This document shows, one piece after another, positions 1,144 to 21,608 of a DNA stretch of 25,966 nucleotides. Every line of letters starts with the position of its first letter. The stretch's first letter is position 1. Both the position numbers and the translations under genes were made by a program. Origin of the DNA: Microbacterium sp. p3-SID336. GTDB lineage: Bacteria; Actinomycetota; Actinomycetes; Actinomycetales; Microbacteriaceae. The notes beneath the pieces are model-generated. The model ran no database searches and was not told where the DNA came from. It saw only the letters and a list, made by a program, of their open reading frames with translations. The stretch is taken from NCBI RefSeq assembly GCF_025143365.1, contig NZ_JALXPE010000052.1, forward strand, positions 1 to 25,966, given 5' to 3'.

Positions 1144-1150
1144 GGGCGCC

Positions 1151-1179
1151 AATGTAATCGATTTCATCCGGATGCACCA
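1151..1179 (-). promoter_or_regulatory. Candidate promoter of the GH172 gene, leaderless
   Basis: On the minus strand, TGGTGC (1174-1179) and TACATT (1151-1156) are 17 bp apart, with the operator filling the spacer and -10. The expected transcription start falls on or next to the ATG at 1143. This explains the missing ribosome binding site. The -35 is weak. Confidence 0.45.
1152..1167. promoter_or_regulatory. LacI-type operator at the GH172 promoter
   Basis: The imperfect palindrome ATGTAATCGATTTCAT has core GTAATCGATTTC at 1154-1165. It differs by one base from the perfect palindrome GAAATCGATTTC at 2275-2286. A central CG is usual for LacI-family operators. It overlaps the presumed -10 of the GH172 gene and lies about 80 nt upstream of the divergent lacI-type gene, so it may also serve autoregulation. 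Confidence 0.75.
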
Positions 1180-1211
1180 GGGATCGGGACCGCGCGGTAC
1201 TGTTGCTTCAC

Positions 1212-1228
1212 GTCCGGGGTCCCCGGAC
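1212..1228. promoter_or_regulatory. Palindrome in the leader of the lacI-type gene
   Basis: GTCCGGGG and CCCCGGAC form perfect 8-bp arms around a single T, ending 15 nt before the ATG at 1244. The one-base centre is too tight for an RNA hairpin loop without losing pairs, so a protein-binding site is as likely as a leader structure. It does not resemble either LacI operator type in this window. Confidence 0.4.
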
Positions 1229-1243
1229 AGGCAGTGAGGGTGC

Positions 1244-2230: not shown

Positions 2231-2265
2231 GGACGTTCTTCCAGGCGGGGAGGAGCGCTCCCATC

Positions 2266-2295
2266 TTGCGCCGTGAAATCGATTTCGCATACAGT
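2266..2295 (+). promoter_or_regulatory. Promoter and operator of the kinase-isomerase operon
   Basis: TTGCGC (2266-2271) and TACAGT (2290-2295) are separated by 18 bp. The perfect palindrome GAAATCGATTTC (2275-2286) fills that spacer. A repressor bound there would block RNA polymerase directly. A further short palindrome, GGAGCGCTCC (2252-2261), lies just upstream and may instead mark the end of the lacI-type gene. The kinase start at 2338 has a strong AAGGAGG at 2327-2333. Confidence 0.75.
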
Positions 2296-2337
2296 GAACG
2301 AGGGCGGTGTCGGACCGCCCGCCGTCAAGGAGGACCC

Positions 2338-7939: not shown

Positions 7940-7992
7940 GCCACCAGCATTCCGCGGATCCCCGACGGGTGCCAGGGGGTCGCAGCGGCCCC

Positions 7993-8021
7993 TTCCCGAG
8001 GTCGCACTTAAGCGATATAGT
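7993..8021 (+). promoter_or_regulatory. Promoter and operator of the Endo H-like gene
   Basis: TATAGT (8016-8021) is a good -10; TTCCCG (7993-7998) is a poor -35 at 17 bp. The palindrome-like CTTAAGCGATATAG (8007-8020) overlaps the -10 and matches 11 of 14 positions of the ideal CTAAAGCGCTTTAG. The same AAGCGnTATAGT arrangement is found before the GH5 gene at 15989-16000. Confidence 0.65.
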
Positions 8022-8083
8022 CGGCCGCGGGTCGCTCCGACGCGACCCGCCATCGACAAGGACGCCGAAGGAGACGATCCCCC

Positions 8084-9289
8084 ATGAGTCCGTCATCACC
8101 CAGAACCCGCCGCTTCCGCCGTGCCCTCGCGGCCACCGCCGCGCTCGCCACCGCCGGGCTGGCATCCCTCGCCGGAATCGCGCCCGCGGCCGCGGAGCCC
8201 GGAACAGACGACCCCAAGCTGGCCGTCTACGTGGAAGTGAACTCGAACGATTTAGCAAACGTCGCCGACTACACCCTGGCTGACTCGGGCCGCCCCGCGG
8301 TCGATCTGGCGATGATCTTCGCCGCCAACATCAACTACGACGGCCAGCAGGCGTACCTGCACCTCAACGAGCGGGTCACGGAGACCCTGGAGGACGCCGA
8401 GAACCAGATCCAGCCGCTCCAGGCGCAGGGCACCAAGGTGCTGCTGTCGGTGCTCGGCAACCATCAGGGAGCGGGCTTCGCGAACTTCACCTCGTACGCC
8501 GCGGCCGACGCCTTCGCCGCACAGCTCGCCGACGCGGTCACGCGGTACGGGCTCGACGGCATCGACTTCGACGACGAATGGACCGAGTACGGGGCGAACG
8601 GCACGCCGCAGCCGAACGCGCAGTCGTTCGGGTGGCTCGTCACCGCGCTCCGCGAGCGGCTCGGGCCGGACAAGCTCATCACGCTGTACGCGATCGGGCC
8701 GTCGTACACGACCACGGACTTCACGCTGTTCGACGTCGCCGCCGTGCTCGACCATGCCTGGAACCCGTACTACCCCACGTACGACGCCCCGACCGTGCCG
8801 GGGCTGGACGATCGTTCGCGGCTCGGCGCCGCGGCGATCGACCTCGCGAACACGAGCGCCGCGACCGCTGCGGACTTCGCTCAGCGCACGGTCGCCGACG
8901 GGTACGGCGTCTACGTCGCCTACAACCTCACGGCGACCGACCAGTCCGCCTATCTCTCCGGCATCACCCAGGCGCTGAAGGGCGAGGCCACGGTCTATCG
9001 GGCCCCCGGCGCGGACACGACCCCGCCCACTGTGACCATCAAGGACGGCGCGCAGTACACGAAGGAGAAGGACGGGGGCTACAAGCGCGTGAGCTTCCGG
9101 CTGGAGGACGCGGGACTGATCGACCGGATCGTGCTCAACGGCGTGCAGACCGACCTGGAAGACGCCGCGGCGATCGACCTGGACGTCGTGAAGCCGGGCG
9201 TCCTCGGCGCCGCACGAGGCTCCAACACGATGCAGGTCACGGACGCTGCGGGCAACACGACCGAGGTGACGTTCTTCCTGACGAAGTGA
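8084..9289 (+). CDS. Secreted GH18 Endo H-like endo-beta-N-acetylglucosaminidase
   Basis: The 401-residue precursor has an Arg-rich N-terminus, a hydrophobic core and an AxA cleavage site near residues 35-37, so it is exported. The GH18 domain (about 40-310) closely resembles Streptomyces Endo H. It has YGLDGIDFDDEW with the catalytic pair D163 and E165, then EYGANGTPQPNAQSF, ITLYAIGPSY, WNPYYPTYD and DGYGVYVAYNL. Such enzymes cut between the two core GlcNAc residues of high-mannose or hybrid N-glycans. A C-terminal domain of about 90 residues (from DTTPPTVTI) looks like an Ig-like bacterial adhesion or carbohydrate module and is not in Endo H itself. AAGGAG lies 10 nt before the start. A LacI-type operator covers the promoter. 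A rare TTA codon is at 8252-8254. It converges on the GH92 gene with a 1-bp gap. Confidence 0.92.
   Translation: MSPSSPRTRRFRRALAATAALATAGLASLAGIAPAAAEPGTDDPKLAVYVEVNSNDLANVADYTLADSGRPAVDLAMIFAANINYDGQQAYLHLNERVTETLEDAENQIQPLQAQGTKVLLSVLGNHQGAGFANFTSYAAADAFAAQLADAVTRYGLDGIDFDDEWTEYGANGTPQPNAQSFGWLVTALRERLGPDKLITLYAIGPSYTTTDFTLFDVAAVLDHAWNPYYPTYDAPTVPGLDDRSRLGAAAIDLANTSAATAADFAQRTVADGYGVYVAYNLTATDQSAYLSGITQALKGEATVYRAPGADTTPPTVTIKDGAQYTKEKDGGYKRVSFRLEDAGLIDRIVLNGVQTDLEDAAAIDLDVVKPGVLGAARGSNTMQVTDAAGNTTEVTFFLTK
8242..8255. promoter_or_regulatory. Intragenic operator-like site containing a TTA codon
   Basis: CTCGAACGATTTAG matches 9 of 14 positions of the ideal operator, and its CGATTTAGCA half matches 9 of 10 bases of the site before the ABC operon. 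It lies about 220 bp downstream of the promoter operator, inside the Endo H-like gene. The TTA leucine codon (codon 57) is part of it. An auxiliary looping operator is possible. Confidence 0.35.
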
Positions 9290-9290
9290 G

Positions 9291-12200
9291 TCAGCCCAGG
9301 TCGAACAGCTCCAGCTGACGGATCGTGACCTCGGCATCCGCGCACAGGCGGATCGCCGAGGTCACGGTGCGTGCGGCGAGGGTGAACGGGGTCGTGCGGT
9401 CGGGGAGCAGGGCCTCCGCATGGGTCGGTGTCACGCGCCGCCACTTTCCGTCCGGCTCGCGCACCTCCCAGTGCCAGGCGTCGGCAGGGGTCGCGGTCAC
9501 CGCGGTCACCGTCACGTCGGTGAGGCTCCGCGCCGCCGGGAAGCTCCAGCCCAGCCACTCGCCCGGCCGCAGGGTCACGCCGTCCGCTCCGGTCGGGTCG
9601 CCGTCGTCGAACAGCCGCTCCGCGTGGTCGAGGCCGGGCGAGGCGAGGGGCTCGCCGGCGCCGGAGGTCAGGTCCGGGTGCCAGGGCTCGATGGAGCCGG
9701 ACGCTTCCCCGGTCTCCAGTGCCTCCGCGGGGTCACGGGTGAAGACGAGATCGAGCACCGCGCGCCCGGTCAGCGCCTCCACGGGCAGGTCGGCGGTCGC
9801 CAGCGGCACCCCGTCGAGCAGCGCCGACCGGAGCACGTGCGCCCCCGGCGCCGTGCGGTGCGCGCGGATGCGGAGGGAGGACCCGTCGCCCCGGTCGACG
9901 CGGATGTCGTCGAACAGCGGCGAGCCGATCCGCAGGTGTCCCGCCGCGAGTTCGAGCGGATACAGCCCGAGCGCGGCCCAGAGCCACCAGGCGCTCATCT
10001 CGCCGTTGTCCTCATCGCCCGGGAAGCCCTGGCCGATGTGGGCGCCCGCGAACAGGCGCCCGGCGAGGCCGTGCACGAGCTCGCCGGAGAGCCAGGGGCG
10101 GTCGCTGAACGCGTACATCAACGGGATGTGGTGGGCAGGCTGGTTGGACAGCGCGCACATGCCGGATCGCTGGGCCCTGGCCTCGCGCTGCTCGTGGATG
10201 ACGGTGCCGTACGCCCCGCCGAAGCGCTCGTCCGCGGTCTCCGGCTCGGCGAACAGCGCGTCCAGGTGACGGCCGAATCCGGTGGGTCCGCCGTGCAGCG
10301 CCGCGAGCCCCGTGCCGTCGTGCACCGCCCCGACAGACATGCCCCAGGCGTTCGTCTCGACGTTGTCGCCGCCCCACGTGCGCGGGTCGAATCCGGGGGA
10401 GAAGGCGCCGGTCGCGTCGCGCCCGCGGAAGAACCCGGTGTCGGCGTCGAAGAGCGTGCGATACGAGCGCGCCCTGTTCGCGAAGTAGCGCGCGAAGGCG
10501 CCGTAGCGCGCGGCCTGTGCGGTGGACTCCGCGTCCGACGCGAGCTGGTCTGCGAAGCGACCGAGGGCGGCATCGCTCACGGCGTTCTCGATGCTCCAGC
10601 TCATGCCCTCCGGCACGTCCGAGGCGATGTACCCGGTGAAGCGTCCGCGCCCGATGCCCTTGCGGCCGCGCCGGGCGTCCGTGCCGGGCTCGCACGCGTT
10701 GCGCCAGCCGCTCTCGAAAGCGGTCCGTCGGTCGAACGGGACACCCCAGCGCGCGGCGTCGGCGAAGATCTGGTCGCTCGACGTGCCCACCATGCTGTCG
10801 ACGTAGCCCGGGGCGCTCCAGCGGGCCATCCAGCCGCCGCGGCGATACTGCGCCAGCTGCCCGTCGAGCAGCCGCCCGGCGAGCGCGGGATCCAGCAGCG
10901 CGAGCGCGGGCCACTCCGTGCGATAGGTGTCCCAGTAGCCGTTGTTCACCACGAGCTCGCCCTCGACGGCCGGTGCGCTCGTGCGCGATTCCCCGAAGGG
11001 CTCGCGCGGAGCGAAGACGTCGGCGAAGCGCCACGCCGGCGCGGCGGCGGTGCCCGTCTTCTCGGCGGCCGTGTTCGGGTACAGGTGCATGCGGTGCAGG
11101 GCAGCCGCGATCCGAGCGCGGTGCTCCTCGTCGGCGAGGGCGCGGAACGACTGCTCGACGGCGGGCAGCGGCGGGATCGTCACGCGGCCGAGCAGCCGGT
11201 TCCACGCGGTGGCTCCCTCGGTGCGGAGTTCTTCGAACGAGAGGGAGGGCGGCGCCTCCTGGGCGAGACTGCGCCGGGCCTGCGCGATCGACAGGAACGA
11301 CACCGCGATGCGGATCTCGACGGAGCCCTGCCCCCGCACGTACCCCGCGACGCGCCCGCGCCCGTCGTCGTCGAGCCTTCCGTGCTCTTTCGCACCGGCG
11401 GTGGTCGAATCTCCGTCCGCTCGCGTGCGGGGATCCGCCGATCCGTGCCCGGCTCCGATGGGGCGTGTGCCTCGGTCCTCCGCGCTGGCCGCGGCTCCGG
11501 TGCTTCCCTCGCCCGATCCGGTCGCGGTGATGCCGTGGTCCTCTCCGGCGGCGGCTTCGGCCTCGTGGTCCTTCCCGCGGTGCACGACCCCGGCGAAGTA
11601 GCAGCGCGGGGCGTTGCCCCAGTCCTCGGGACCCTCGGGGATCCAGCCCTCGAAGCCGCCGTCCGCGGTCCACCGGAGCCGGCCCTCGTCGGTCAGCTGA
11701 TCGAGCACGAACCCGACCGCCGCCGCGGGGTCCTCTGACGTCACGACGAACGCCGCCGCGTGCGAGGTGGCGGTCATCGCGACCCGCAGCCCGTCCCCGA
11801 GCTCGGCGGCGTACTCGTGCGGGCGGGCGCGCTCGCTGCCCGGGACGATCCAGCGGCGTCGGGCGGCACGGGCGGAGTGCGGCACACCGAGGAACGGCAT
11901 GACCTGCAGCACCGAGCGGTCGCCGATCCATGGGCTCGGCTGATGCGAGAACTGCAGCGCCTCCAGGCGACGGCCCTGCGGATCGTCGTGCACGAACGGG
12001 CGGTACGGCCAGCGGGCGTCGGAGGCGTCGGTGGCCGGTGTGACGAAGGTGAAGCCGTGCGGCACGGCGACGGCCGGGATCGTGTTGCCGCGGGAGAAGC
12101 GCGGGCCCGAGTGCGTGCCGCGGCGGGTGTCCACGCGCTCCACGGGCGGGAGGTCCTGTCCGGCCGGGGCCCGCTCCTCGACGAGAACCTGCACGAAGCC

Positions 12201-12680
12201 GGACGCGTGGGCAGGCAGAAGCGGGTCGTCAGCGAGGGAGCACGTGCCCAGGACGAGCTCGACGGTGCCGCGTCGCCCCGCATCCGCCAGCGGCGCCAGG
12301 GAGACGGTGTCGGCGTTCCACTGCTCCGGCATGCTCCAGCGGGCGTCGAACTGCGCGTCGGCCGCGAGCGGAAAGTCGTACCGGTCCCGCACGGCCTCGA
12401 CCTCGCTCAGCCGACGGCCGTCGTCGAGGCGCACGTCCACCGTCACCGCGAGTGCCGCGTGTGGGGCGAGCGTCGCGTCCGGCCCGTCCGCGTAGAACGC
12501 CCAATGCACGACCGTGTCGGGCGTCAGCAGCACCTCGGCGAGACCGGGGACGTCGACGCGCTGCTCCCCGTGCGAGGGGTCGAACGCGAAGGCGAAGACC
12601 GGGCCGCTGAGCACCCCCGCGTGCGGACGCGACGACGGCGGATCCGCCGGACCGGCGGCCGGTGTCAGGCGCAGGCTCAC
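9291..12680 (-). CDS. GH92 exo-alpha-mannosidase, cytoplasmic
   Basis: The 1129-residue protein is long for GH92. An N-terminal beta-rich region precedes VDTRRGTHSGPRFSRGNTIP (about 183), the family's N-domain opening. Later come SNQPAHHIPLMYAF (about 850) and GFPGDEDNGEMSAWWLWAALG (about 885), the GH92 signature with the acidic residues of the inverting, calcium-dependent mechanism. There is no signal peptide. It would remove alpha-linked mannose from imported high-mannose glycans; linkage preference cannot be read. The GTG start at 12680 overlaps the TGA of the upstream permease gene (GTGA), so translation is coupled to the importer. A Gly/Ala/Glu/Asp-rich insertion of about 70 residues (about 367-440) interrupts the N-terminal domain. 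A 17-bp hairpin is embedded in its last codons. Confidence 0.9.
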   Translation of the reverse strand: MSLRLTPAAGPADPPSSRPHAGVLSGPVFAFAFDPSHGEQRVDVPGLAEVLLTPDTVVHWAFYADGPDATLAPHAALAVTVDVRLDDGRRLSEVEAVRDRYDFPLAADAQFDARWSMPEQWNADTVSLAPLADAGRRGTVELVLGTCSLADDPLLPAHASGFVQVLVEERAPAGQDLPPVERVDTRRGTHSGPRFSRGNTIPAVAVPHGFTFVTPATDASDARWPYRPFVHDDPQGRRLEALQFSHQPSPWIGDRSVLQVMPFLGVPHSARAARRRWIVPGSERARPHEYAAELGDGLRVAMTATSHAAAFVVTSEDPAAAVGFVLDQLTDEGRLRWTADGGFEGWIPEGPEDWGNAPRCYFAGVVHRGKDHEAEAAAGEDHGITATGSGEGSTGAAASAEDRGTRPIGAGHGSADPRTRADGDSTTAGAKEHGRLDDDGRGRVAGYVRGQGSVEIRIAVSFLSIAQARRSLAQEAPPSLSFEELRTEGATAWNRLLGRVTIPPLPAVEQSFRALADEEHRARIAAALHRMHLYPNTAAEKTGTAAAPAWRFADVFAPREPFGESRTSAPAVEGELVVNNGYWDTYRTEWPALALLDPALAGRLLDGQLAQYRRGGWMARWSAPGYVDSMVGTSSDQIFADAARWGVPFDRRTAFESGWRNACEPGTDARRGRKGIGRGRFTGYIASDVPEGMSWSIENAVSDAALGRFADQLASDAESTAQAARYGAFARYFANRARSYRTLFDADTGFFRGRDATGAFSPGFDPRTWGGDNVETNAWGMSVGAVHDGTGLAALHGGPTGFGRHLDALFAEPETADERFGGAYGTVIHEQREARAQRSGMCALSNQPAHHIPLMYAFSDRPWLSGELVHGLAGRLFAGAHIGQGFPGDEDNGEMSAWWLWAALGLYPLELAAGHLRIGSPLFDDIRVDRGDGSSLRIRAHRTAPGAHVLRSALLDGVPLATADLPVEALTGRAVLDLVFTRDPAEALETGEASGSIEPWHPDLTSGAGEPLASPGLDHAERLFDDGDPTGADGVTLRPGEWLGWSFPAARSLTDVTVTAVTATPADAWHWEVREPDGKWRRVTPTHAEALLPDRTTPFTLAARTVTSAIRLCADAEVTIRQLELFDLG
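9324..9366. terminator. Long hairpin inside the GH92 3' end, candidate terminator for the Endo H-like gene
   Basis: GTGACCTCGGC plus ATCCGC (9325-9341) pair with GCGGAT plus GCCGAGGTCAC (9348-9365) around a 6-nt loop. This gives 17 bp with one bulged C at 9354, and a further C-G pair outside. The hairpin begins 35 nt after the Endo H-like stop while still coding on the other strand. No T-run follows on either strand. Confidence 0.55.
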
Positions 12681-13606
12681 CCCTTCAGCGCACCCTCCTG
12701 CACGCCCTTGAAGAAGAACCGCTGCGTGAAGGAGAACATGATGACGATCGGCACCAGTGCGATCATGGTGCCCGCCGCGATCAGGCGCGGGTCCACCGAG
12801 AAGCTGCTGTTCAGGTACGCCATGCCGACGGTGAGCGTGTACTTGGCCGGGTCGGAGAGCACGATCAGCGGCCACAGGTAGTCGTCCCATGCGCCGATGA
12901 ACGCGAAGATCGCGACGACCGACACCATGCCGCGGATGTTGGGCCACACGATGTGGCGGATGCGCTGCCAGGTGCTCGCGCCGTCCACCGTCGCGGCGTC
13001 GAGCACGTCGGCGGGGATCATCCGGCAGGCCGTCGCGATCAGCAGCACGTTCATGGCGCTGATGGCTCCCGGCAGGAACACGCCCCACAGGGTGTCGGCG
13101 AGGCCGAGCGCGCGGATCGTGAGGAAGTTGCTCGTCACGGTGACCTCGCCGGGGAACAGCAGCGTCGACAGCAGGATCCCCATCACGATCCACTTGCCGC
13201 GGAACCGCATGCAGCCCAGGGCGTAGCCGGCGAAGGTCGACAGCACCACGTTGCTGATGACCGTGCCGATCGACACGAGCAGCGAGTGCCAGGCGTACAG
13301 GTACACCGGGACGATGTCGGCGACGGTGGCGTAGTTCTTGAGCGTCGGATCCCGCGGGATCAGCTCGGGCGGGAAGGAATAGATGTTCTCCGTCGGGCCC
13401 TTGAACGAGGTCGACAGCTGCCAGACGAACGGACCGATCACGAGGAACAGCACCAGCAGCAGCAGCGCGTACCGCCCGATCAGGCCGCCGAGGGTGGGCT
13501 TGCTGAAGTCGCCGGAGCCGCGGCGGCGGAAGATGCGCTCGCGGGTACGGGGCGTCGGCGCGGCGGGCTGCTCGCTGTCGGCGCGCGGCGGGGTGAGCGT
13601 GGTCAT
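12677..13606 (-). CDS. ABC sugar importer permease, MalG type
   Basis: The 309-residue inner-membrane protein has six predicted hydrophobic segments. Its cytoplasmic EAA-type loop reads IPADVLDAATVDGASTWQRIRHIVWPNIRG, where the ATPase subunit docks. The C-terminal FTQRFFFKGVQEGALKG is typical of the second permease of CUT1 oligosaccharide importers. Its ATG overlaps the stop of the first permease (ATGA), and its own stop overlaps the GH92 start (GTGA). It would form the channel with the first permease and import N-glycan-derived manno-oligosaccharides delivered by the lipoprotein encoded upstream (substrate inferred from context). Confidence 0.92.
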   Translation of the reverse strand: MTTLTPPRADSEQPAAPTPRTRERIFRRRGSGDFSKPTLGGLIGRYALLLLVLFLVIGPFVWQLSTSFKGPTENIYSFPPELIPRDPTLKNYATVADIVPVYLYAWHSLLVSIGTVISNVVLSTFAGYALGCMRFRGKWIVMGILLSTLLFPGEVTVTSNFLTIRALGLADTLWGVFLPGAISAMNVLLIATACRMIPADVLDAATVDGASTWQRIRHIVWPNIRGMVSVVAIFAFIGAWDDYLWPLIVLSDPAKYTLTVGMAYLNSSFSVDPRLIAAGTMIALVPIVIMFSFTQRFFFKGVQEGALKG

Positions 13607-14490
13607 GCCGAGACCTTCGCCTTCTTCTCGCGGTTCATGAACGCGATGGCCGCGAGCGGCACGAGCGTGAGGAGGAAGAGGGCCACGCTGATCGCGGACG
13701 CGTAGCCGATGTTGCCGTTCAGCCCAGAGCCGACCTGGCGGATCAGCATCACGAGCGACATGTCGTAGCCGCCGGGACCGCCCGTGCTCTTGGACAGCAC
13801 GTCGAGCTCGGCGAACACCCTCATGGCCGATACGGCGATCAGTACCGCGATGAGGAGCATGGCTCCGCGCACGGAGGGGATCGTCACGGAGAGGAAGCGG
13901 CGGAAGGAGCCGGCGCCGTCGAGCATCGCCGCCTCGTGCAGCTCCTTGCCGACGTTCCCGAGCGCGGCGAGGTACACGACCATGTAGTAGCCGAGGCCCT
14001 TCCAGACCGTGAGCAGGATCGCGCAGCCGAGCAGCAGCCAGCGGTCGACGAGGAACGCCATCGGCTTGTCGATCACACCGAGGAACTCGAGGGTCTGGTT
14101 GATGATGCCGCGGCTGTCGAACAGCCACGTCCAGATGAGGGCGACGACCACGACCGAGGCGATCACCGGGAAGTAGAACGTGGTGCGGAAGAACGAGATG
14201 CCGGGCAGCTTCTTCTGCACGAGCAGGGCGAGCAGCAGCGGGAGGATCGTGAGCAGCGGCACGCACACGACCACGTAGATGAGGCAGGTGGTCAGCGCGT
14301 TCCAGAACATCTCGTCGCCGAACATGCGCTCGTAGTTCGCGCCGCCGACGAACTCCGGTGTGCGCAGCGGGCGCGCGTTCGTGAAGCTCAGGAAGACCGT
14401 GTTGAGGAACGGCCAGAGCGCGAACACCAGCACCCAGATCACGGCGGGGGCGAGGAGCAGCCACGGTGTGAACCACCGATGCGATCTCAT
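13603..14490 (-). CDS. ABC sugar importer permease, MalF type
   Basis: The 295-residue inner-membrane protein opens with WFTPWLLLAPAVIWVLVFALWPF, the usual first segment of CUT1 permeases. It carries the EAA loop ELHEAAMLDGAGSFRRFLSVTIP. The ATG at 14490 has GGAGG six bases upstream. It lies 41 nt downstream of the binding-protein gene and overlaps the second permease gene by four bases. No ATPase subunit is encoded in the operon, so a shared MsiK/UgpC-like ATPase from elsewhere is probably used, as in many actinobacterial CUT1 systems. Confidence 0.92.
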   Translation of the reverse strand: MRSHRWFTPWLLLAPAVIWVLVFALWPFLNTVFLSFTNARPLRTPEFVGGANYERMFGDEMFWNALTTCLIYVVVCVPLLTILPLLLALLVQKKLPGISFFRTTFYFPVIASVVVVALIWTWLFDSRGIINQTLEFLGVIDKPMAFLVDRWLLLGCAILLTVWKGLGYYMVVYLAALGNVGKELHEAAMLDGAGSFRRFLSVTIPSVRGAMLLIAVLIAVSAMRVFAELDVLSKSTGGPGGYDMSLVMLIRQVGSGLNGNIGYASAISVALFLLTLVPLAAIAFMNREKKAKVSA

Positions 14491-14531
14491 CGTCTTCCTC
14501 CGGCTCGGGGTGCCGGTGTCCGCGCGCGTGC

Positions 14532-15833
14532 TCACTGGTCCACGCGGTTCGCGTTGGCGTACTCGACGATCTTGTCGAGCTGGGCCTTCGGGTCGGCCTC
14601 GCCGTTGACTGCCAGCGCGATCTGCTGCGTCATGTACGTGGCCATGTCGGAGGTCCACTGGAACGGCAGCGCCTTGGCGTCCTTCATCGCGCCGAAGACG
14701 GTGTCGATCGCGGCGAGCTGCTTCTCGTCGGTGACCGAGGAGGCGATGTTCTCGACGACCTTGTCGCCGCCCTCCGCGGTGCCGGGAGCCGTGCCGACCG
14801 CGAGCGACGAGAACGCGATCTGGTTCTCCTCGTTGGTCGCGAACTCGGCGAACGCCAGCGCGGCCTCCTTGTTGTCGGAGTCGGCGGAGACGTTCAGGCC
14901 CTGCACGTAGAGCGGCGCGACCCCGAGGCGCGGCGTGGCGACGGTGTTCGCCAGCAGGGTCGGCGCATCCTTCTGCAGGTCGGTCGTGAAGCCGGTGCCG
15001 CCGGTGGTGAAGGCGACCTTCTCCTGGATGTAGGCCTCCGCGTTGCCGCCGTAGTCGCCGGTCAGCGCCTCGGCCGGCATCGCGCCCGCCGCGTAGGCGT
15101 CGGCGTACTTCTGGATGATCGCGGCGGCCTCGTCGGTGTTGAAGTCGAACTCGCCCTCGTCGTTGATGACCTCCATGCCGGCGGCGGTGAAGGTGTCGAG
15201 CGCGGGGATCGAGGAGAGCAGCTGCACCTTGCCGCCGGACTCGGTGGCCACGTCGGTGGCGAGGGTGAGCAGCTCGTCGACTGTGGTGGGCAGGTTCTGC
15301 TCGGTCACGCCGTAGGGCGCGAGCTGGGCGAGGTTCCACCATGAGGCGTCGCTCGACAGGTACCACGGCAGGCCGTAGGTGCCCTCGACGCCGGGGTACT
15401 GGCTGTACGCCTCCCAGGCGCCGGTGTTGTACGCCGACTTCAGGTCGGGGTCGGCGGTGTCGAGGTCGACGAGCTTGCCGGCGGCGACCAGCGGGTAGGC
15501 GATGTCCGGCGGGAGGTTCAGCACGTCGGGGAGGGTGTCGGCGTTGGCCTGGCTGAGGATCTTCTCCTGGTAGCCGTCGCCCGGCTGGTCGAGCCACTCG
15601 ACCTTCACGTCGGGGTGCTCCTTCTCGAACGCGGCGATCAGGTCCTCGAAGTACGGGGTGAACTTCTCGTTCTTCAGCGACCAGGTCTGGAACTGGATCT
15701 CTCCGCTCAGGTCGCCGGAGGTGTCGATGGGACCGGAGTCGGCCGAGGTCGCGCCGCCTCCCGTGCAGCTCGCGAGCGCCAGGGCGCCGATCGTGAATGT
15801 TGCCAGAGCGACAATGCGTGCGGGAACTTTCAT
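14532..15833 (-). CDS. Extracellular sugar-binding lipoprotein of the ABC importer
   Basis: The 433-residue protein has a lipoprotein signal peptide with lipobox LASC (Cys 23). After cleavage it would be anchored on the outer face of the membrane. The mature part is a family 1 solute-binding protein: GEIQFQTWSLKNEKFTPYFEDLIAAFEKEHPDVKV, then YQEKILSQANADTLPDVLNL, and GLPWYLSSDASWWN, with the aromatic residues typical of oligosaccharide binding. GAGGAAG precedes the ATG at 15833. It is the first gene of a four-gene operon with two permeases and GH92. The presumed ligand is the glycan freed by the Endo H-like enzyme; this is inferred from the locus and the shared operator. Confidence 0.93.
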   Translation of the reverse strand: MKVPARIVALATFTIGALALASCTGGGATSADSGPIDTSGDLSGEIQFQTWSLKNEKFTPYFEDLIAAFEKEHPDVKVEWLDQPGDGYQEKILSQANADTLPDVLNLPPDIAYPLVAAGKLVDLDTADPDLKSAYNTGAWEAYSQYPGVEGTYGLPWYLSSDASWWNLAQLAPYGVTEQNLPTTVDELLTLATDVATESGGKVQLLSSIPALDTFTAAGMEVINDEGEFDFNTDEAAAIIQKYADAYAAGAMPAEALTGDYGGNAEAYIQEKVAFTTGGTGFTTDLQKDAPTLLANTVATPRLGVAPLYVQGLNVSADSDNKEAALAFAEFATNEENQIAFSSLAVGTAPGTAEGGDKVVENIASSVTDEKQLAAIDTVFGAMKDAKALPFQWTSDMATYMTQQIALAVNGEADPKAQLDKIVEYANANRVDQ

Positions 15834-15884
15834 CGTGCTTCTTCCTCGAGGCGGGCGATTCGGCGCGCGGTCCGGCCGTCCGGA

Positions 15885-15930
15885 CTACAGCGCTTTAGCA
15901 GATGAAACCATCCTCGACGTCCGCTGTCAA
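15885..15930 (-). promoter_or_regulatory. Promoter and operator of the importer/GH92 operon
   Basis: On the minus strand, TTGACA (15925-15930) is a perfect -35. It is followed after 17 bp by a weak -10, TTTCAT (15902-15907). CTACAGCGCTTTAG (15885-15898), written on the plus strand, is the best copy of the operator, 13 of 14 to the ideal CTAAAGCGCTTTAG. It covers the expected transcription start, a classic repressor position. Confidence 0.7.
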
Positions 15931-15971
15931 GACGGCCGTGTCGGGCCTCCGTCGAACTCCCGGGAGGCTGG

Positions 15972-16000
15972 TATGCAGCTTGTTGCTCAAGCGTTATAGT
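15972..16000 (+). promoter_or_regulatory. Promoter and operator of the GH5 gene
   Basis: TATAGT (15995-16000) is a clear -10; the -35 (TATGCA, 15972-15977) is weak. CTCAAGCGTTATAG (15986-15999) matches 11 of 14 operator positions and overlaps the -10 exactly as before the Endo H-like gene. Only about 95 bp separate it from the divergent importer promoter, so both could be controlled together. Confidence 0.65.
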
Positions 16001-16048
16001 AGTCCGACATGTCCTCGGGAGAGGGCTTCATCCGAAAGGTGCGAACAC

Positions 16049-17359
16049 ATGACGCAGCGTGGCGCTCTCGACGCTCCCCTGAGATTCGGGGCGAACTACA
16101 CGCCGTCGAAGGACTGGATGCACTCCTGGCTCGACTTCACCCCGGACGACGTGCGCCGCGACTTCGGCGCCCTCGCCGAGCTCGGTCTCGACCACGTCCG
16201 GGTGTTCCCGCTGTGGACGGTGCTGCAGCCCAACCGCACGCTCATCCGCACCAAGGCGCTGGATGACGTGCGGGCCATGGTCGACATCGCCGCCGAGTTC
16301 GAGCTGGACGCGAGCGTCGACGTGATCCAGGGGCATCTGTCGAGCTTCGACTTCGTCCCCGCCTGGCTCTCCACCTGGCACGACCGCAACATGTTCACCG
16401 ACCCGAAGGCGCTCGACGGGCAGGTCACGCTCGTGCAGCGGCTCGCCGGAGCGCTCCGGGACGCCCCGAACTTCCTCGGGCTGACGCTCGGCAACGAGAC
16501 GAACCAGTTCTCCGCGCATACGCACCCCTCGCCCTGGCCGGTCACGGTCGACGAGGCGGGCGGCTGGATCGAGGCGCTGCTCGCCGCCGCACACGAAGCG
16601 GCGCCCGACCTGCCGCACGTGCACAGCGAGTACGACGCCGTCTGGTACATGGACGACCACGGCTTCACCCCGGCGCACGCCTCCCGTCTCGGCGCCATGA
16701 CCACGATCCACTCCTGGATCTTCAACGGCACGGCGCAGCGGTACGGCGGGCGTTCGGTCGCCTCCGACCGGCACGCCGAGTACCTCATCGAGCTCTCCCG
16801 GGCATTCGCGACCGATCCCGAGCGCATCGTCTGGCTGCAGGAGGTGGGCGCGCCGGCGAACTGCCTCGACGAGGCGGAGATGCCCGGCTTCCTGGAGGCC
16901 ACCCTGCGCTCCTCGGCGCGGACCGCGAACCTGTGGGGCGTCACCTGGTGGTGCTCGCACGACGTGAGCCGCGAGCTGGGCGACTTCCCCGAGCTGGAGT
17001 ACTCGCTCGGCCTGATCGATCAGACCGGTGCCGCGAAGCCTCTCGGACGCCGCTTCGCCGAGCTGATCCCGGAGCTGCGCGCTCGCGTCGCGCCCCCGGA
17101 CCGCTCGACTGCGATCGTGGTGGAGGTCGACGAGCACGAGACGCCCGTGAGCCGCGCGGCGCTCAGCCCGGGCGGGGCTGTGTTCCAGGCCTGGGTCGAC
17201 GCGTGCGCTGCGGGGGACGATCCCGCCTTCGTGACCTCGCGCACCGCCCTCGATCCTGCGGCCCTGGAGGCGCGCGGTATCCGTCGTCTCATCCGTCCCG
17301 ATCTGTCGGCCTCCGGCGTCGGCCGCTACGGCTCCGTCAACACCGTCGTCGACGCCTGA
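16049..17359 (+). CDS. GH5 (GH5_18-like) beta-mannosidase for the N-glycan core
   Basis: This 436-residue (beta/alpha)8 enzyme of clan GH-A type has an acid/base candidate in LGNETN (E150) and a nucleophile candidate in WLQEVGAP (E265). It also has [15 protein letters not shown] and TWWCSHD. There is no signal peptide, so it acts in the cytoplasm. Length and motifs resemble subfamily GH5_18. A Bifidobacterium member of that subfamily is a beta-mannosidase specific for Man-beta-1,4-GlcNAc of N-glycans, which is the disaccharide left when GH92/GH38 finish. The ATG at 16049 is preceded by AAAGG. The operator at 15986-15999 places it in the same regulon. The subfamily is assigned from memory of sequence character and context, so specificity is less certain than the family. 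Confidence 0.75.
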
Positions 17360-17382
17360 CGGGACACTGCTGCTTCACCGAG

Positions 17383-17412
17383 GGCCGTGTCGGGCCCGGG
17401 TTCGACACGGCC
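17383..17412. terminator. Terminator-like hairpin between GH5 and the second lacI-type gene
   Basis: The perfect 10-bp arms GGCCGTGTCG (17383-17392) and CGACACGGCC (17403-17412) enclose a 10-nt loop. They sit between two convergent stops (17359 and 17455). The left arm repeats directly at 17410-17421 and, extended to 14 nt, at 15934-15947. Confidence 0.6.
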
Positions 17413-17454
17413 GTGTCGGGGGACCGGACCCCGTCGCTTCGGCTGCCCGGAGCC

Positions 17455-18480
17455 TCAGTGCTGCGGGGGCGCCGTGCTCTCGCGCGCGGTGAGCGTGGGG
17501 GTCGGGCCCTCGACGCTCGGCAGGGTCGTGCCGGCCTCGATCTGCTGCAGCAGCAGCGTCGCCGCCTGCTCGCCGAGCTCGAACGTGTCGCGGGTCATCG
17601 CCGTGATCGACGGGTTGATGAGCCCGGCGATCACCGAGTCGTCGAACGAGGCGAGCGAGACGTCCCGCGGCACCGCTCTGCCCATCTCCTGCGCGACGCG
17701 CAGCCCGGCGACGGCCATCACGTCGTTGTCGTACACGATCGCCGTCGGTCGGAGCCGGCCGGAGAGCTGCGCGCGCGTCACGGCGGAGGCGCGTGCCGGG
17801 GAGAAGTCGGTCGTGATCACCTCGCTCGCGATGCCGTCGGCGGCCATGCGCTCCAAGACCTCGGCGCGCAGACGCGTGTGCTCCAGCTCGGCGGGACCGG
17901 CGACGTAGGCGATGCGGGTGTGGCCGAGGGCGGCGAGGTAGGAGAAGAGGGTCTCCGCGACGGTGTCGTCCCCGATCCAGACGCTGGGCACCGCACCCTC
18001 GGGAGACGGCTTCGAGCCGATCATCACGGCGCGGGCGTCGAGGGCGGCGATGCGGTCACCGCGCGGGTCGTCGTCGCGGGGGTCGATCAGGATGATGCCG
18101 TCGACCTGGTTGGAGGAGCGCCACTGCCGGTGCACCTCCATCTCCTCCTCGATGTCGGCGACCAGGCGCAGCTGCAGGCCGACCTTGCTGACGGAGAGCC
18201 GCGACTCGATGCCCGCGATCAGGTCGGTGAAGAACGCCTCCGACCCGAGGGATCGCGCGGGGCGGGCGAGCGCGAAGCCGACTGCGTTGGCGCGCGCGCC
18301 GACCAGCGCGCGTGCCGCGGAGCTCGGCTGCCAGTGGTGCTCCTCGATGATCGCGAGGATGCGCTGCCTGGTCTCCTCGCTCACGCCGGGGCGCCCGTTG
18401 AGCGCGAAGGAGACGGCGCCGGGGGAGACGCCGGCCAGGCGTGCGATGTCCGCGATCGTCACGCGCTTCCCCGAGGCCAT
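17455..18480 (-). CDS. LacI-family repressor of the N-glycan regulon
   Basis: The 341-residue protein has an N-terminal helix-turn-helix (residues about 8-30; TIADIARLAGVSPGAVSFAL) and a hinge ending ARALVGARANAVGFAL. A sugar-binding-like effector domain follows (QVDGIILIDPRDDD; ALGHTRIAYVAGP; SLASFDDSVIAGLINPSITAM). It sits between the GH5 and GH38 genes. The operator-like palindrome recurs at five promoters of the locus, including its own (18493-18506) and the divergent GH38 gene, so it is the natural candidate to bind them. The inducer is probably a mannosyl oligosaccharide or Man-GlcNAc (inference). No Shine-Dalgarno is evident before the ATG at 18480. A TAGGGT ending 7 nt upstream would allow a leaderless transcript. 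Confidence 0.92.
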   Translation of the reverse strand: MASGKRVTIADIARLAGVSPGAVSFALNGRPGVSEETRQRILAIIEEHHWQPSSAARALVGARANAVGFALARPARSLGSEAFFTDLIAGIESRLSVSKVGLQLRLVADIEEEMEVHRQWRSSNQVDGIILIDPRDDDPRGDRIAALDARAVMIGSKPSPEGAVPSVWIGDDTVAETLFSYLAALGHTRIAYVAGPAELEHTRLRAEVLERMAADGIASEVITTDFSPARASAVTRAQLSGRLRPTAIVYDNDVMAVAGLRVAQEMGRAVPRDVSLASFDDSVIAGLINPSITAMTRDTFELGEQAATLLLQQIEAGTTLPSVEGPTPTLTARESTAPPQH

Positions 18481-18492
18481 GGCATCACCCTA

Positions 18493-18506
18493 CTTGATCG
18501 GTTTAG
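18493..18506. promoter_or_regulatory. Operator-like site before the second lacI-type gene
   Basis: CTTGATCGGTTTAG matches 10 of 14 positions of CTAAAGCGCTTTAG and ends 13 bp from the repressor's start codon, suggesting autoregulation. It lies 40 bp from the GH38 operator, so the pair could act together. Confidence 0.5.
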
Positions 18507-18533
18507 CCTCCCGGAAGCGCGCGCGGGGTCCCG

Positions 18534-18562
18534 TAGACTCGCATCACTAGATCGCTTTAGTA
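18534..18562 (+). promoter_or_regulatory. Promoter and operator of the GH38 gene
   Basis: TAGACT (18534-18539) and TTTAGT (18557-18562) are 17 bp apart. CTAGATCGCTTTAG (18547-18560) matches 12 of 14 operator positions and overlaps the -10 in the same register as before the Endo H-like and GH5 genes. Confidence 0.65.
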
Positions 18563-18614
18563 AATCCGATAGCATCAACAGCAACCCTCACCGTCGAGCC
18601 CGGAGACTCCCACC

Positions 18615-21608
18615 ATGCATGACGACACCTCGCTCACCGTCGGCCGCGTCAAGCGGGTCCTGGACGAGCGCATCCGCCCCGCGATCCACTCCGGCGCCGT
18701 CCCGCTCACGGTCGAGCTGCACGAGCTGCCGGGCGAGCCGATCCCGCCGGCCGAGGGTCTGGCGCTCGACTTAGCACCCGGCGCGGTCGGCGAGCTGTGG
18801 GGCCCTGCGTGGGGCACGACCTGGTTCAGGCTCACGGGCCGCGTGCCCGCGGAGTGGGCGGGCCGCCGTGTCGAGGCGCTGATCGACCTCGGCTTCGACG
18901 TGAACATGACGGGCTTCCAGTGCGAGGCCCTGGCGTACCGCCCCGATGGCACGCCGATCAAGAGCATCAACCCGCGCAACCAGTGGGTGCCGATCGCCGA
19001 GACCGCCGCGGGCGACGAGCCCGTCGAGCTCTACCTGGAGGGCGCGTCCAACCCGGTGCTGCTCGACTACCACCCCTTCCTGCCGACGCAGGAGGGCGAC
19101 ATCCTCACCTCCTCGAAGGAGCCCCTGTACCGACTGCGCCGCCTGGACCTCGCGGTGTTCGAGCCGGAGGTGTTCGACCTGTCGCTCGACCTCGAGGTGC
19201 TGTTCGAGCTGCAGGCCGAGCTTCCCGCGACGTCGCCGCGGCGCATGCGCATCCTGCAGGCGATGGACGACGCCCTCGACGTGCTCGATCTGCAGCGCAT
19301 CGTCGACACGGCCGCCGACGCCCGGGCCCGCCTGGCCGACGTGCTCGCCGCGCCCGCCGAGGCCAGCGCGCACCGCATCTCCGCGGTCGGGCACGCCCAC
19401 ATCGACTCCGCGTGGCTGTGGCCCGTGCGGGAGACGATCCGCAAGGTGGCGCGCACCACGTCCTCCATGACCACCCTCATCGAGGAGCAGCCCGACTTCC
19501 AGTACGGCATGTCCAGCGCGCAGCAGTACGCGTGGCTCCAGGAGCACCGGCCGGAGGTGTGGGAGCGGGTGAAGGCCGCGGTCGCCGCAGGGCGCTTCCT
19601 CCCGCTGGGCGGCATGTGGGTCGAGTCCGACACCGTGATGCCGACGGGCGAGTCGCTCGTGCGGCAGTTCTCCCACGGCCAGCGCTTCTTCGAGCGCGAG
19701 TTCGGCATCCGCTCGAAGGGCGTGTGGCTGCCCGACAGCTTCGGCTACTCGCCCGCCCTCCCGCAGCTCATGCGCCGCGCGGGCTTCGAGTGGTTCTTCA
19801 CGCAGAAGATCTCGTGGAACCAGCAGAACGTGTTCCCGCACCACACCTTCCTGTGGGAGGGCATCGACGGCTCGCAGGTGTTCACGCACTTCCCGTCCAT
19901 GGACACCTACAACTCGCAGCTGAGCGGCATGGAGGTCGCGAAGGCCTCCCGGCAGTTCAAGGAGAACCGGGTCACGTCGCGGTCGATCGCACCGGTCGGC
20001 TGGGGCGACGGCGGCGGCGGCACGACCCGGGAGATGACGGGCAAGGCCGAGCGGCTGCGCGACCTCGAGGGCAGCGCGCAGGTGGTGTGGGAGCACCCGG
20101 ACGACTTCTTCGCGCAGGCGCGGGCCGAGCTGCCGCACCCCGCCGTGTGGGTGGGGGAGCTGTACCTGGAGCTGCACCGCGGCACCCTCACCAGCCAGCA
20201 CGCCACGAAGGCGCTGCACCGCTGGGCCGAGCACGCGCTGGTCGAGGCCGAGCTGTGGGCGGCCACCGACGCCGTGCGCACCGGGGCCGCATACCCGCAG
20301 GCCGAGTTCGACCGGCTGTGGCAGACCGTGCTGCTGCACGAGTTCCACGACATCCTGCCCGGCACGTCCATCGCCTGGGTGCACCGGGAGGCGGTCGCCG
20401 TGCTGTCCGACGTGCTCTCGGACGCGCAGGACATCGCGGATGCCGCGCGGCGGTCGCTCGCCGGAGAGGGCGACCGCGCCCTGCGCTTCGTGCCGACCTC
20501 GGTCGGCGGCGGCCGTGCGCTCGGGGCGGCGTTCGTCGGGGAGAGCACGGCTGCGCCGGTGTCTCTGACCCAGGAGGACGGCGGCTGGCGGCTGGAGAAC
20601 GACCTCGTCTCGGTGCTCGTGTCGGGGGAGGGGCTGATCGTCTCCGCGGTCGACAAGGCGTCAGGGCGGGAGGCGGTCGCCGCCGGCAGGGCCGCGAACC
20701 TGTTCCAGCTGCACCAGGACTTCCCGAACATGTGGGACGCCTGGGACATCGACCGGTACTACCGCAACAGCGTCGAGGACCTCACGGCGGTCTCGTCGAT
20801 CGAGGCGACCGTCATCAACGGCGTCGCCCAGATCGTCGTCGTGCGGCCGTTCTCCGAGTCGAGCATCACGCAGACGATCATCCTCGCGCCGGAGTCGCGC
20901 ACGGTGCACCTGCGCAACGACGTCGACTGGCACGAGACCGAGAAGCTGCTCAAGCTCGCCTTCCCGCTCGACATCCAGGCGGCGCACACCGAGGCCGAGA
21001 CGCAGTTCGGCTACCAGGCGCGCGTCACCCACACCAACACGAGCTGGGAGGCCGCGAAGTTCGAGACCTCGATGCACCGCTTCGTGCTGGTGCGGGAGCA
21101 GGACTTCGGTGCGGCGCTCGTGAACGACTCGATCTACGGCTACGACACCACGCGCGACGTCGACGGCGACGCGGTCACCACCACCGTGCGGCTCTCGCTG
21201 CTGCGGGCTCCCCGGTTCCCCGACCCCGACACCGACCACGGCCACCACCAGATCGAGGTCGGCTTCGTGATCGGCGCGGATGCGGCGACCGCGACCGCCG
21301 AGGGCATCCGTCTCAACGCGCTGCCGACCGTGGTGCGCGGCGCGCGCGAGGTGGAGCCGCTGGTCGCCGTGACCGGTGAGGGCATCGTCGTGTCGGCGGT
21401 CAAGCTCGCCGACGACGGCTCGGGCGACGTGATCGTGCGGGTGTACGAGGCCCTCGGACGCCGGGCCGCGGGCGAGCTGTCGGTCGGGTTCGCGCATCGC
21501 GAGGTGCGCGAGGTGAGCCTGATCGAGGACGACCTCGACGAGGCGCGCGAGGGCGGCGAGCTGCGGCTCCGTCCGTTCGAGGTGCGGACGCTCCGCATCG
21601 TGCGCTGA
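18615..21608 (+). CDS. GH38 alpha-mannosidase, cytoplasmic
   Basis: The 997-residue enzyme is of usual length for bacterial/ER-cytosolic type GH38. An N-terminal beta domain (about 1-250) precedes the catalytic domain. That domain has zinc ligands in GHAHIDSAWLWP (H260, H262, D264), the nucleophile Asp in WLPDSFGYSPALPQLM (D374), and the C-terminal zinc His in HEFHDILPG. A long beta-sandwich C-terminal half follows. It is a retaining, zinc-dependent exo-alpha-mannosidase. With no signal peptide it would trim imported mannosides alongside GH92. GGAG lies 9 nt before the ATG. A TTA codon is at codon 53 (18771-18773), inside an operator-like half-site. It is transcribed divergently from the repressor. 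Confidence 0.94.
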   Translation: MHDDTSLTVGRVKRVLDERIRPAIHSGAVPLTVELHELPGEPIPPAEGLALDLAPGAVGELWGPAWGTTWFRLTGRVPAEWAGRRVEALIDLGFDVNMTGFQCEALAYRPDGTPIKSINPRNQWVPIAETAAGDEPVELYLEGASNPVLLDYHPFLPTQEGDILTSSKEPLYRLRRLDLAVFEPEVFDLSLDLEVLFELQAELPATSPRRMRILQAMDDALDVLDLQRIVDTAADARARLADVLAAPAEASAHRISAVGHAHIDSAWLWPVRETIRKVARTTSSMTTLIEEQPDFQYGMSSAQQYAWLQEHRPEVWERVKAAVAAGRFLPLGGMWVESDTVMPTGESLVRQFSHGQRFFEREFGIRSKGVWLPDSFGYSPALPQLMRRAGFEWFFTQKISWNQQNVFPHHTFLWEGIDGSQVFTHFPSMDTYNSQLSGMEVAKASRQFKENRVTSRSIAPVGWGDGGGGTTREMTGKAERLRDLEGSAQVVWEHPDDFFAQARAELPHPAVWVGELYLELHRGTLTSQHATKALHRWAEHALVEAELWAATDAVRTGAAYPQAEFDRLWQTVLLHEFHDILPGTSIAWVHREAVAVLSDVLSDAQDIADAARRSLAGEGDRALRFVPTSVGGGRALGAAFVGESTAAPVSLTQEDGGWRLENDLVSVLVSGEGLIVSAVDKASGREAVAAGRAANLFQLHQDFPNMWDAWDIDRYYRNSVEDLTAVSSIEATVINGVAQIVVVRPFSESSITQTIILAPESRTVHLRNDVDWHETEKLLKLAFPLDIQAAHTEAETQFGYQARVTHTNTSWEAAKFETSMHRFVLVREQDFGAALVNDSIYGYDTTRDVDGDAVTTTVRLSLLRAPRFPDPDTDHGHHQIEVGFVIGADAATATAEGIRLNALPTVVRGAREVEPLVAVTGEGIVVSAVKLADDGSGDVIVRVYEALGRRAAGELSVGFAHREVREVSLIEDDLDEAREGGELRLRPFEVRTLRIVR
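18767..18776. promoter_or_regulatory. Operator-like half-site with TTA codon in the GH38 gene
   Basis: CGACTTAGCA resembles the half-site CGCTTTAGCA (15891-15900) at 8 of 10 bases. It lies about 207 bp downstream of the promoter operator, close to the spacing in the Endo H-like gene. The evidence is weak on its own and is listed because of the parallel. Confidence 0.25.

What the first reader, a model, noticed from the sequence alone, without database searches (positions are those of the whole stretch)
7993..21608. Complete high-mannose N-glycan capture and breakdown locus in an actinobacterium
One contiguous stretch holds an exported Endo H-like GH18, a lipoprotein/two-permease importer, cytoplasmic GH92 and GH38 alpha-mannosidases, a GH5_18-like beta-mannosidase and a LacI-type regulator. 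Together they give every step from glycoprotein to mannose plus GlcNAc. The logic parallels Bifidobacterium N-glycan loci, but the gene set and regulator look different and the likely host is environmental or commensal Microbacteriaceae. The families are established knowledge; the pathway is inference from co-location and the shared operator.
Basis: partly seen in the sequence, partly recalled or inferred. Interest (0 to 1): 0.82.

Follow-up and report, generated by a model that had tools for sequence, protein, structure and literature searches.

The report
N-glycan-eating gene cluster with built-in operator
A Microbacterium carries a gene set that should strip sugar trees off proteins, import them and break them down; its switch protein appears to be shared with gut bifidobacteria, and one of the switch's docking sites lies inside the gene of the secreted enzyme.

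Summary
The locus is real. Window 8006-21608 encodes a secreted Endo H (GH18), a lipoprotein and two permeases, GH92, GH5_18 and GH38 mannosidases and a LacI regulator. The host is Microbacterium. The catabolic logic is known from Bifidobacterium: a new member of a known kind.

The less expected part is control. A 16-bp palindrome (RCTAAANCGNTTTAGY) occurs six times. In seven relatives' genomes all 41 matches lie in this locus. Elsewhere it leads to other N-glycan enzymes: GH85 in Microbacterium; GH38, GH125 and an EndoS-type GH18 in Bifidobacterium. In 101 Bifidobacterium genomes, operator and GH5_18 occur in the same 26. The regulators form one clade over five families, so the claim that the regulator differs from Bifidobacterium fails.

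One operator lies inside the Endo H coding sequence. All 26 distinct Endo H genes with an upstream operator of their own keep it, with codons AAC-TCK-AAC-GAT-TTA; TTA is otherwise 1 of 4,605 leucine codons in six companion genes. None of nine operon-internal Endo H genes has it. This resembles lac O2 and implies a double lock on the secreted enzyme. Regulation and substrate are inferred; nothing was assayed.

The parts
8006..8021 (+). LacI-type operator upstream of Endo H (ACTTAAGCGATATAGT), 62 bases before the ATG
   Evidence: upstream site present in every Endo H row that has the inner site
8084..9289 (+). Endo H-type GH18 endo-beta-N-acetylglucosaminidase, 401 aa, exported (signal peptide by eye), extra C-terminal domain of unassigned type
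   Evidence: PDB 1edt E 8e-86 over residues 39-304 with DGIDFDDE motif aligned; NF045482 372.7 bits, cut-off 300
8241..8256 (+). Intragenic operator inside Endo H (ACTCGAACGATTTAGC; codons AAC TCG AAC GAT TTA GCA), 235 bp from the upstream operator
   Evidence: kept in 26 of 26 distinct Endo H genes with their own upstream operator and 0 of 9 distinct operon-internal ones
9291..12680 (-). GH92 alpha-1,2-mannosidase, 1129 aa, GTG start overlapping the permease stop, no signal peptide seen
   Evidence: PF07971 2e-93; TIGR01180 286 bits, cut-off 249.55; NnGH92 E944, H996-E997 and D1058 equivalents aligned
12677..13606 (-). ABC permease 2 (MalG-like), 309 aa
   Evidence: PF00528; weak NCBIfam likeness to MalG; start
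13603..14535 (-). ABC permease 1, 310 aa (GTG start) or 295 aa (ATG 14490)
   Evidence: PF00528
14532..15833 (-). Extracellular sugar-binding lipoprotein, 433 aa, lipobox LALASC by eye
   Evidence: PF13416/PF01547; nearest solved 6wpm E 8e-28
15884..15899 (.). Operator before the lipoprotein operon (ACTACAGCGCTTTAGC)
15985..16000 (.). Operator before GH5_18 (GCTCAAGCGTTATAGT)
16049..17359 (+). GH5_18 beta-mannosidase for Man-beta-1,4-GlcNAc, 436 aa, no signal peptide seen
   Evidence: PDB 9y4v E 1e-257, 7lr7, 7lqx, 6mp2, 6gvb; motifs GNETNQFS and WLQEVGAP lie in the part aligned with 9y4v and 7lr7; matched to catalytic Glu140/Glu259 of CaMan5_18 (PMC6160142 passages) by inference, not by alignment
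17383..17412 (.). 13-bp GC hairpin between convergent GH5 and LacI genes, possible two-way terminator
   Evidence: the whole 111-nt stretch folds no better than shuffles (z -0.64)
17455..18480 (-). LacI-family regulator, 341 aa, HTH SPGAVSFALN
   Evidence: PF00356/PF13377; clade of 39 rows, support 100/99
18492..18507 (.). Operator before LacI itself (ACTTGATCGGTTTAGC), suggests autoregulation
18546..18561 (.). Operator before GH38 (ACTAGATCGCTTTAGT)
18615..21608 (+). GH38 alpha-mannosidase, 997 aa, no signal peptide seen
   Evidence: PF01074 5e-92; PDB 7ufr E 2e-241, with WLPDSFGY aligned to WLPDSFGY of 7ufr and to WLPASFGY of 7ufu, read as a nucleophile mutant

Best explanation
This is a LacI-controlled operon set for eating high-mannose N-glycans. 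Secreted Endo H cuts the chitobiose core and frees Man5-9GlcNAc. The lipoprotein and two permeases import it, with an ATPase encoded elsewhere. In the cytoplasm GH92 removes alpha-1,2 mannose, GH38 removes alpha-1,3 and alpha-1,6 mannose, and GH5_18 splits Man-beta-1,4-GlcNAc. The LacI protein represses four transcription units and itself through RCTAAANCGNTTTAGY operators until an intracellular breakdown product appears. The same regulator and operator serve N-glycan genes in other Actinomycetota, Bifidobacterium included. In one Microbacterium lineage Endo H stands alone, convergent to the importer operon, and is held by two operators: one upstream and one about 235 bp further on, inside its coding sequence. 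The inner site works as a roadblock or auxiliary operator, as lac O2 does, and forces a rare TTA codon to be kept. Shown here: gene content, residues, operator positions, conservation, co-occurrence, codon constraint. Inferred: substrate, inducer, repression and the action of the inner site.
For: Families and residues. Operators: 6 in the window, shuffle mean 0.00 (pattern written from these sites). In 7 relatives' genomes (3.5-4.0 Mb) 41 of 41 matches lie in the locus (the reversed control pattern gave 11 matches there). 70 of 80 related loci have a site upstream of the SBP, GH5, LacI, GH38 or Endo H gene (my count). Unlinked sites lead to GH85 in 3 Microbacterium genomes; 6 of 7 GH85 genes found in 149 genomes carry the site, 0.02 expected. 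Bifidobacterium: operator genomes and GH5_18 genomes are the same 26 of 101; in the stretches looked at, sites sit at GH38, SBP, GH5_18, LacI, GH125 and EndoS-type GH18 genes. All 20 Endo H and all 7 GH85 genomes also hold GH5_18, which 42 of 149 hold. Intragenic site: 26 of 26 against 0 of 9; TTA 26 of 26 there, 0 of 26 at each of 12 other invariant Leu columns, 1 of 4,605 Leu codons in the aligned parts of six companion genes.
Against: No assay, expression or binding data. Operator and regulator are linked by position and co-occurrence only. Endo H with its own operator looks like a single lineage (5 rows, 100/100), so 26 against 9 is about one evolutionary switch, not 35 independent cases. 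Of 23 GH5_18 Microbacterium genomes among 79, 5 have no operator match (with a pattern narrower than some true window sites), and 2 operator genomes have no GH5_18 hit. 7 of 80 loci have no site and 3 only unassigned ones. One GH85 gene of 7 lacks it. One Bifidobacterium site (L152) has no N-glycan gene beside it, and one Microbacterium site on a separate contig (G032) was not looked at. The LacI seems to lack a tetramerisation tail (by eye), so looping needs another explanation. No sigma-70-like promoter was found in 7900-9400.
Confidence: 0.85

Rival explanations
1. The conserved TTA codon in Endo H is a translational control point (a bldA-like rare-tRNA switch) and not an operator.
For: TTA is almost absent otherwise (1 of 4,605 Leu codons in six companion genes), so it may cost translation.
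Against: The neighbouring codons are fixed too (TCG or TCT, AAC, GAT; GAT is the minority codon at the other 15 invariant Asp columns), the 16 bases match the operator pattern whose 41 matches in 7 genomes all lie in this locus, and operon-internal Endo H genes lack both.
Confidence: 0.1
2. The main substrate is fungal or yeast mannan, and N-glycan handling is secondary.
For: GH92 and GH38 also act on yeast mannan (review PMC10154615, passages; NnGH92 was tested on yeast mannan, PMC10167667, passages).
Against: Endo H and GH5_18 act on the chitobiose and Man-beta-1,4-GlcNAc core; no GH76 or GH99 was seen among the 20 window reading frames scanned with Pfam; operator-linked genes elsewhere are the endo-beta-N-acetylglucosaminidases GH85 and EndoS-type GH18. 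Fungal glycoprotein N-glycans remain a likely natural source.
Confidence: 0.12
3. The operators belong to a different LacI or a global regulator, and the local LacI acts elsewhere.
For: Two Microbacterium genomes with no GH5_18 hit have matches beside a distant LacI, 27-28% identical (G043, G054).
Against: The local LacI has an operator in its own promoter, and its orthologues accompany the operator across five families.
Confidence: 0.05

Closest known systems
Bifidobacterium longum high-mannose N-glycan cluster (Cordeiro et al. 2022/2023; known here only as cited in review PMC10154615, passages; the paper itself is not held)
   Same: ENGase, cytoplasmic GH38 and GH5_18 logic; same LacI clade and operator in the Bifidobacterium loci examined here (B. 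phasiani by name, others unnamed; B. pullorum has the operator, its regulator was not seen in the stretch held)
   Different: GH92 takes the alpha-1,2 step here; one GH38 and no GH125 seen in the window; Endo H-type GH18 with no membrane anchor seen; intragenic operator.
Cutibacterium acnes N-glycan locus 1 (PMC6160142, passages read)
   Same: GH38, GH5_18, ABC transporter, regulator gene; GH18 in some strains
   Different: GH20 and no GH92 named in the passages read; no operator described in them
Streptococcus pneumoniae N-glycan system (PMC5215778, search listing only; otherwise recalled)
   Same: GH92, GH38, ABC importer logic (recalled)
   Different: GH85 EndoD, GH125, other regulators, different phylum (recalled)
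E. coli lac operator O2 inside lacZ (site in lacZ named in PMC4052901, passages read; rest recalled)
   Same: LacI-family operator inside a structural gene in addition to an upstream one
   Different: 235 bp spacing here against about 400 (recalled); repressor seems to lack the tetramer helix; site tied to a rare codon
Streptomyces Endo H (PDB 1edt; source organism recalled)
   Same: Catalytic domain, active-site motif
   Different: Extra C-terminal domain of about 95 residues, local LacI control

Membership tests
Endo H-type GH18 | Equivalog model score above cut-off and D-x-D-x-E active site | tested here: met
   372.7 against 300 bits; motif aligned to 1edt
Endo H-type GH18 | Cleaves high-mannose, not complex, N-glycans | not testable with these tools
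   needs an assay
GH5_18 | Closest to characterised GH5_18 enzymes, two catalytic Glu | tested here: met
   dbCAN not run; catalytic Glu placed by motif
GH92 alpha-1,2-mannosidase | Acid Glu, base Asp, +1 subsite His-Glu pair | tested here: met
   alignment read against residues named in PMC10167667; Trp of the +1 subsite not checked
GH38 | GH38N, middle and C domains, nucleophile Asp | tested here: met
Carbohydrate ABC importer | SBP plus two permeases | tested here: met
Carbohydrate ABC importer | ATPase encoded in the locus | tested here: not met
   none among the 20 reading frames scanned; a shared ATPase elsewhere is usual in such systems (recalled)
Actinobacterial LacI N-glycan regulon | Orthologous LacI and operator with GH5_18 genes | tested here: met
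Actinobacterial LacI N-glycan regulon | LacI binds the operator and responds to an N-glycan product | not testable with these tools
   needs EMSA and inducer tests
Intragenic auxiliary operator (lac O2 kind) | Operator in the coding sequence kept by selection at DNA level | tested here: met
   codon constraint
Intragenic auxiliary operator (lac O2 kind) | Contributes to repression | not testable with these tools
   needs reporter strains

The most novel reading that the evidence does not exclude
One LacI repressor is the old, shared N-glycan switch of Actinomycetota, from Microbacterium and Lentzea to gut Bifidobacterium. In the Microbacterium lineage where Endo H stands outside the importer operon, the gene gained a second operator inside its own coding sequence that fixes an otherwise avoided UUA codon. 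The secreted, shareable enzyme is thus locked twice in transcription and perhaps slowed once more in translation.
Probability: 0.35. Interest if true: 0.65.

Novelty: new variant of a known kind. Interest (0 to 1): 0.52.

Why it matters
The operator is a sequence tag that finds N-glycan genes wherever they sit: searched as a bare pattern it led to GH85 in Microbacterium and to GH125 and an EndoS-type GH18 in Bifidobacterium, and it gives a testable regulator for N-glycan use in gut bifidobacteria. Intragenic LacI-family operators are rare (under 1% of sites in the survey PMC4052901, passages read). This one is supported by a conserved rare codon and a natural control (operon-internal Endo H genes without it). 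In 9 library searches I saw no title or abstract on this regulon or the inner operator. The library holds open-licence papers only, and a Bifidobacterium regulon survey (PMC4746261, passages and one section read) left 18 regulator groups without a pathway, whose tables I could not read.

Tried and rejected
Looping between the two Endo H operators: spacing 232-238 bp is narrow, but signal-peptide length alone would hold it so, and I saw no tetramerisation helix in the LacI; not claimed. P-type ATPase as part of the system: rejected, found in only 6 of 80 related loci. Promoter and terminator consensus scan of 7900-9400: nothing found. The hairpin at 17383-17412 was noted, but its whole stretch folds no better than shuffles. 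GH20 counts were wrong because the query began with an out-of-frame stretch of permease; repeated with a trimmed query (the GH20 marks come from the untrimmed query and are not used). Plasmid search: one weak match only. The PDB entry 9y4v, the closest GH5_18, is named in no paper of the library. I did not run structure prediction or dbCAN.

Selection effects: one search kept the best 80 of 124 confirmed loci. The window pattern and the consensus were written from the window's own sites; the Bifidobacterium pattern from two Bifidobacterium loci that are among the 101 genomes. One search picked its 26 genes by the presence of the motif; one search shows that every row with Endo H opposite to GH92 has it, so none was lost that way; for one of the 26 (L115) GH92 was not in the stretch held. 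Distinct operon-internal genes (9) are my count after merging duplicate loci; one divergent Endo H (L127) could not be placed and is left out. The 79-genome and 149-genome Microbacterium samples overlap almost but perhaps not wholly.
Full report
What is there. The window is a high-GC Microbacterium contig: relatives of its GH5 gene with 83-90% identity are all titled Microbacterium. Its N-glycan LacI is 97% identical to that of Microbacterium sp. LCT-H2 (L059) and 93% to that of M. sufflavum SSW1-51 (L001). The finding's region holds, in order, Endo H (+), then GH92, permease 2, permease 1 and the binding lipoprotein as one run on the minus strand, GH5_18 (+), LacI (-) and GH38 (+). Endo H ends at 9289 and GH92 at 9291, so these two are convergent and nearly touch.

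Enzymes. Endo H matches the solved Endo H through the catalytic domain, with the DGxDFDDE motif intact, and passes the NCBIfam equivalog cut-off. GH5 is closest to 9y4v and then to ScGH5_18, BlGH5_18, BlMan5B and 6gvb. GH92 aligns with the N. novalis alpha-1,2-mannosidase; the acid Glu944, base Asp1058 and the His996-Glu997 pair named in PMC10167667 (passages) have identical residues here (my reading of the printed alignment). GH38 aligns along its length with the 7ufr-7uft set. Review PMC10154615 (passages) says that B. longum GH38 enzymes remove the last alpha-1,6 mannose and that GH5_18 enzymes break Man-beta-1,4-GlcNAc, so the set here is sufficient on paper. Secretion and lipidation were judged by eye. 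A Microbacterium GH92 (strain M-90, 1994) is already cited in PMC10167667.

Operators. Reading the promoter regions side by side gave the palindrome RCTAAANCGNTTTAGY. Six window sites score at least 12 of 14, against 0.01 in Markov-random sequence; the pattern RCTNNANCGNTWTAGY gives the same six and none in 100 shuffles. Both were written from these sites, so the test that counts is elsewhere. They lie before Endo H, inside Endo H, before the lipoprotein, before GH5, before LacI and before GH38. Of 80 related loci (best 80 of 124), 70 have a site upstream of one of these genes, 3 only at unassigned places and 7 none (my count). In seven relatives with the same arrangement, all 41 whole-genome matches lie in the locus; the reversed control pattern gave 11 matches in those genomes.

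The regulon outside the locus. In 79 Microbacterium genomes 20 have a site; 18 of these hold GH5_18, 2 do not (their site lies beside a LacI only 27-28% identical), and 5 GH5_18 genomes have none (Fisher p 2e-11, relatedness ignored). I looked at the surroundings of 12 stretches; most other sites lie close to GH5_18 by coordinate, and one on a separate contig (G032) was not looked at. Three unlinked sites (G008, G009, G038) lie before GH85, another endo-beta-N-acetylglucosaminidase family. GH85 was found in 7 of 149 genomes, and 6 of the 7 genes have a site of 13-14 of 14 within about 120 bases upstream, against 0.02 expected in all. Endo H was found in 20 of 149 genomes and GH5_18 in 42; every Endo H and GH85 genome also has GH5_18.

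Bifidobacterium. Of 101 genomes, 26 have WCTAAANCGNTTTAGW and 26 have GH5_18, and they are the same 26 (the reversed control hits five others). In 18 stretches fetched from 12 of the 26, sites stand before GH38, lipoprotein, GH5_18 or LacI genes, and others beside GH125 (Pfam-confirmed in L153 and L161; look-alikes in L158 and L164 were not scanned) and an EndoS-type GH18 (L155, 233 bases upstream). One site (L152) has no such gene. A tree of 55 LacI rows, thinned by me from 88, puts the N-glycan LacIs of Bifidobacteriaceae, Streptomycetaceae, Pseudonocardiaceae, Micrococcaceae and Microbacteriaceae in one clade of 39 (100/99) apart from 16 other LacI rows. The outgroup is small, and the program warned of long branches. 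PMC9599254 (passages) names a NagR paralogue, NglR, as potential regulator of a complex N-glycan cluster in one B. infantis strain, so bifidobacteria may use more than one regulator.

The intragenic operator. In 26 distinct Endo H genes that have their own upstream operator (25 seen convergent to GH92; for L115 GH92 was not in the stretch), the codons AAC-TCK-AAC-GAT-TTA are fixed (TCG 24, TCT 2). Of 149 invariant amino-acid columns 28 use one codon throughout; GAT and TTA here are the only two of these that end in A or T. TTA is used at this one of 13 invariant leucine columns in 26 of 26 genes and never at the other 12. Over the aligned parts of GH5, LacI, GH38, SBP, permease 2 and GH92, where held for those loci, it is 1 of 4,605 leucine codons. 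Nine distinct Endo H genes that lie in the same direction behind GH92 have ATG or CTC, GAC, and AGC or AAC there, and no operator. Upstream and inner operators are 232-238 bp apart. I read this as DNA-level selection on an operator within the coding sequence. Because Endo H with its own operator looks like one lineage, the contrast amounts to about one evolutionary switch.

Variation. Of the 80 loci, Endo H is found in 26, all with GH92; GH92 in 30; GH20 in 24, six of these with both a sulfatase and a GH29 fucosidase and no Endo H. The same chassis (LacI, importer, GH5_18, GH38) therefore seems to be fitted for high-mannose or for complex N-glycans in different species. Many loci are cut by contig ends, so the counts are lower bounds.

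Judgement. The locus as described is a good, ordinary find: known families, known pathway, known for Bifidobacterium. The shared regulator and operator, and above all the inner operator with its fixed rare codon, are what a specialist would not have expected. I file it as a new variant of a known kind. Nothing has been tested at the bench.

Noticed in passing
window 10-5486: Separate sugar cluster: DUF2961 protein (-), its own LacI (1244-2230 +), FGGY kinase (2338-3855 +) and a fucose-isomerase-like protein (3852-5486 +); a palindrome GTGAAATCGATTTCGC at 2273 may be that LacI's operator. Relatives of this LacI (80-92%) occur at the far end of nine of the loci in the tree.
   Followed up: partly
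L020, L023, L024, L030, L031, L032: Variant loci with GH20, a sulfatase and a GH29 fucosidase and no Endo H or GH92, around the same LacI, importer, GH5_18 and GH38; they look fitted for complex or sulfated N-glycans.
   Followed up: partly
window 17383-17412: 13-bp GC hairpin between the convergent GH5 and LacI genes; its word GGCCGTGTCGGG recurs at about 15934, between the two operators there, and at about 17409.
   Followed up: no
L006 and L059: Two close relatives keep GH92 and the rest of the locus but show no Endo H in the stretch held; possible natural deletions, useful as controls.
   Followed up: no
L152 position 4613: A full operator match in an unnamed Bifidobacterium genome near an NMT1/THI5-like binding protein and what looks like a tRNA-synthetase gene (by eye); unexplained.
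   Followed up: no
window 8999-9289: C-terminal part of Endo H (about residues 306-401) without a Pfam match; tblastn matches in many relatives stop before it.
   Followed up: no
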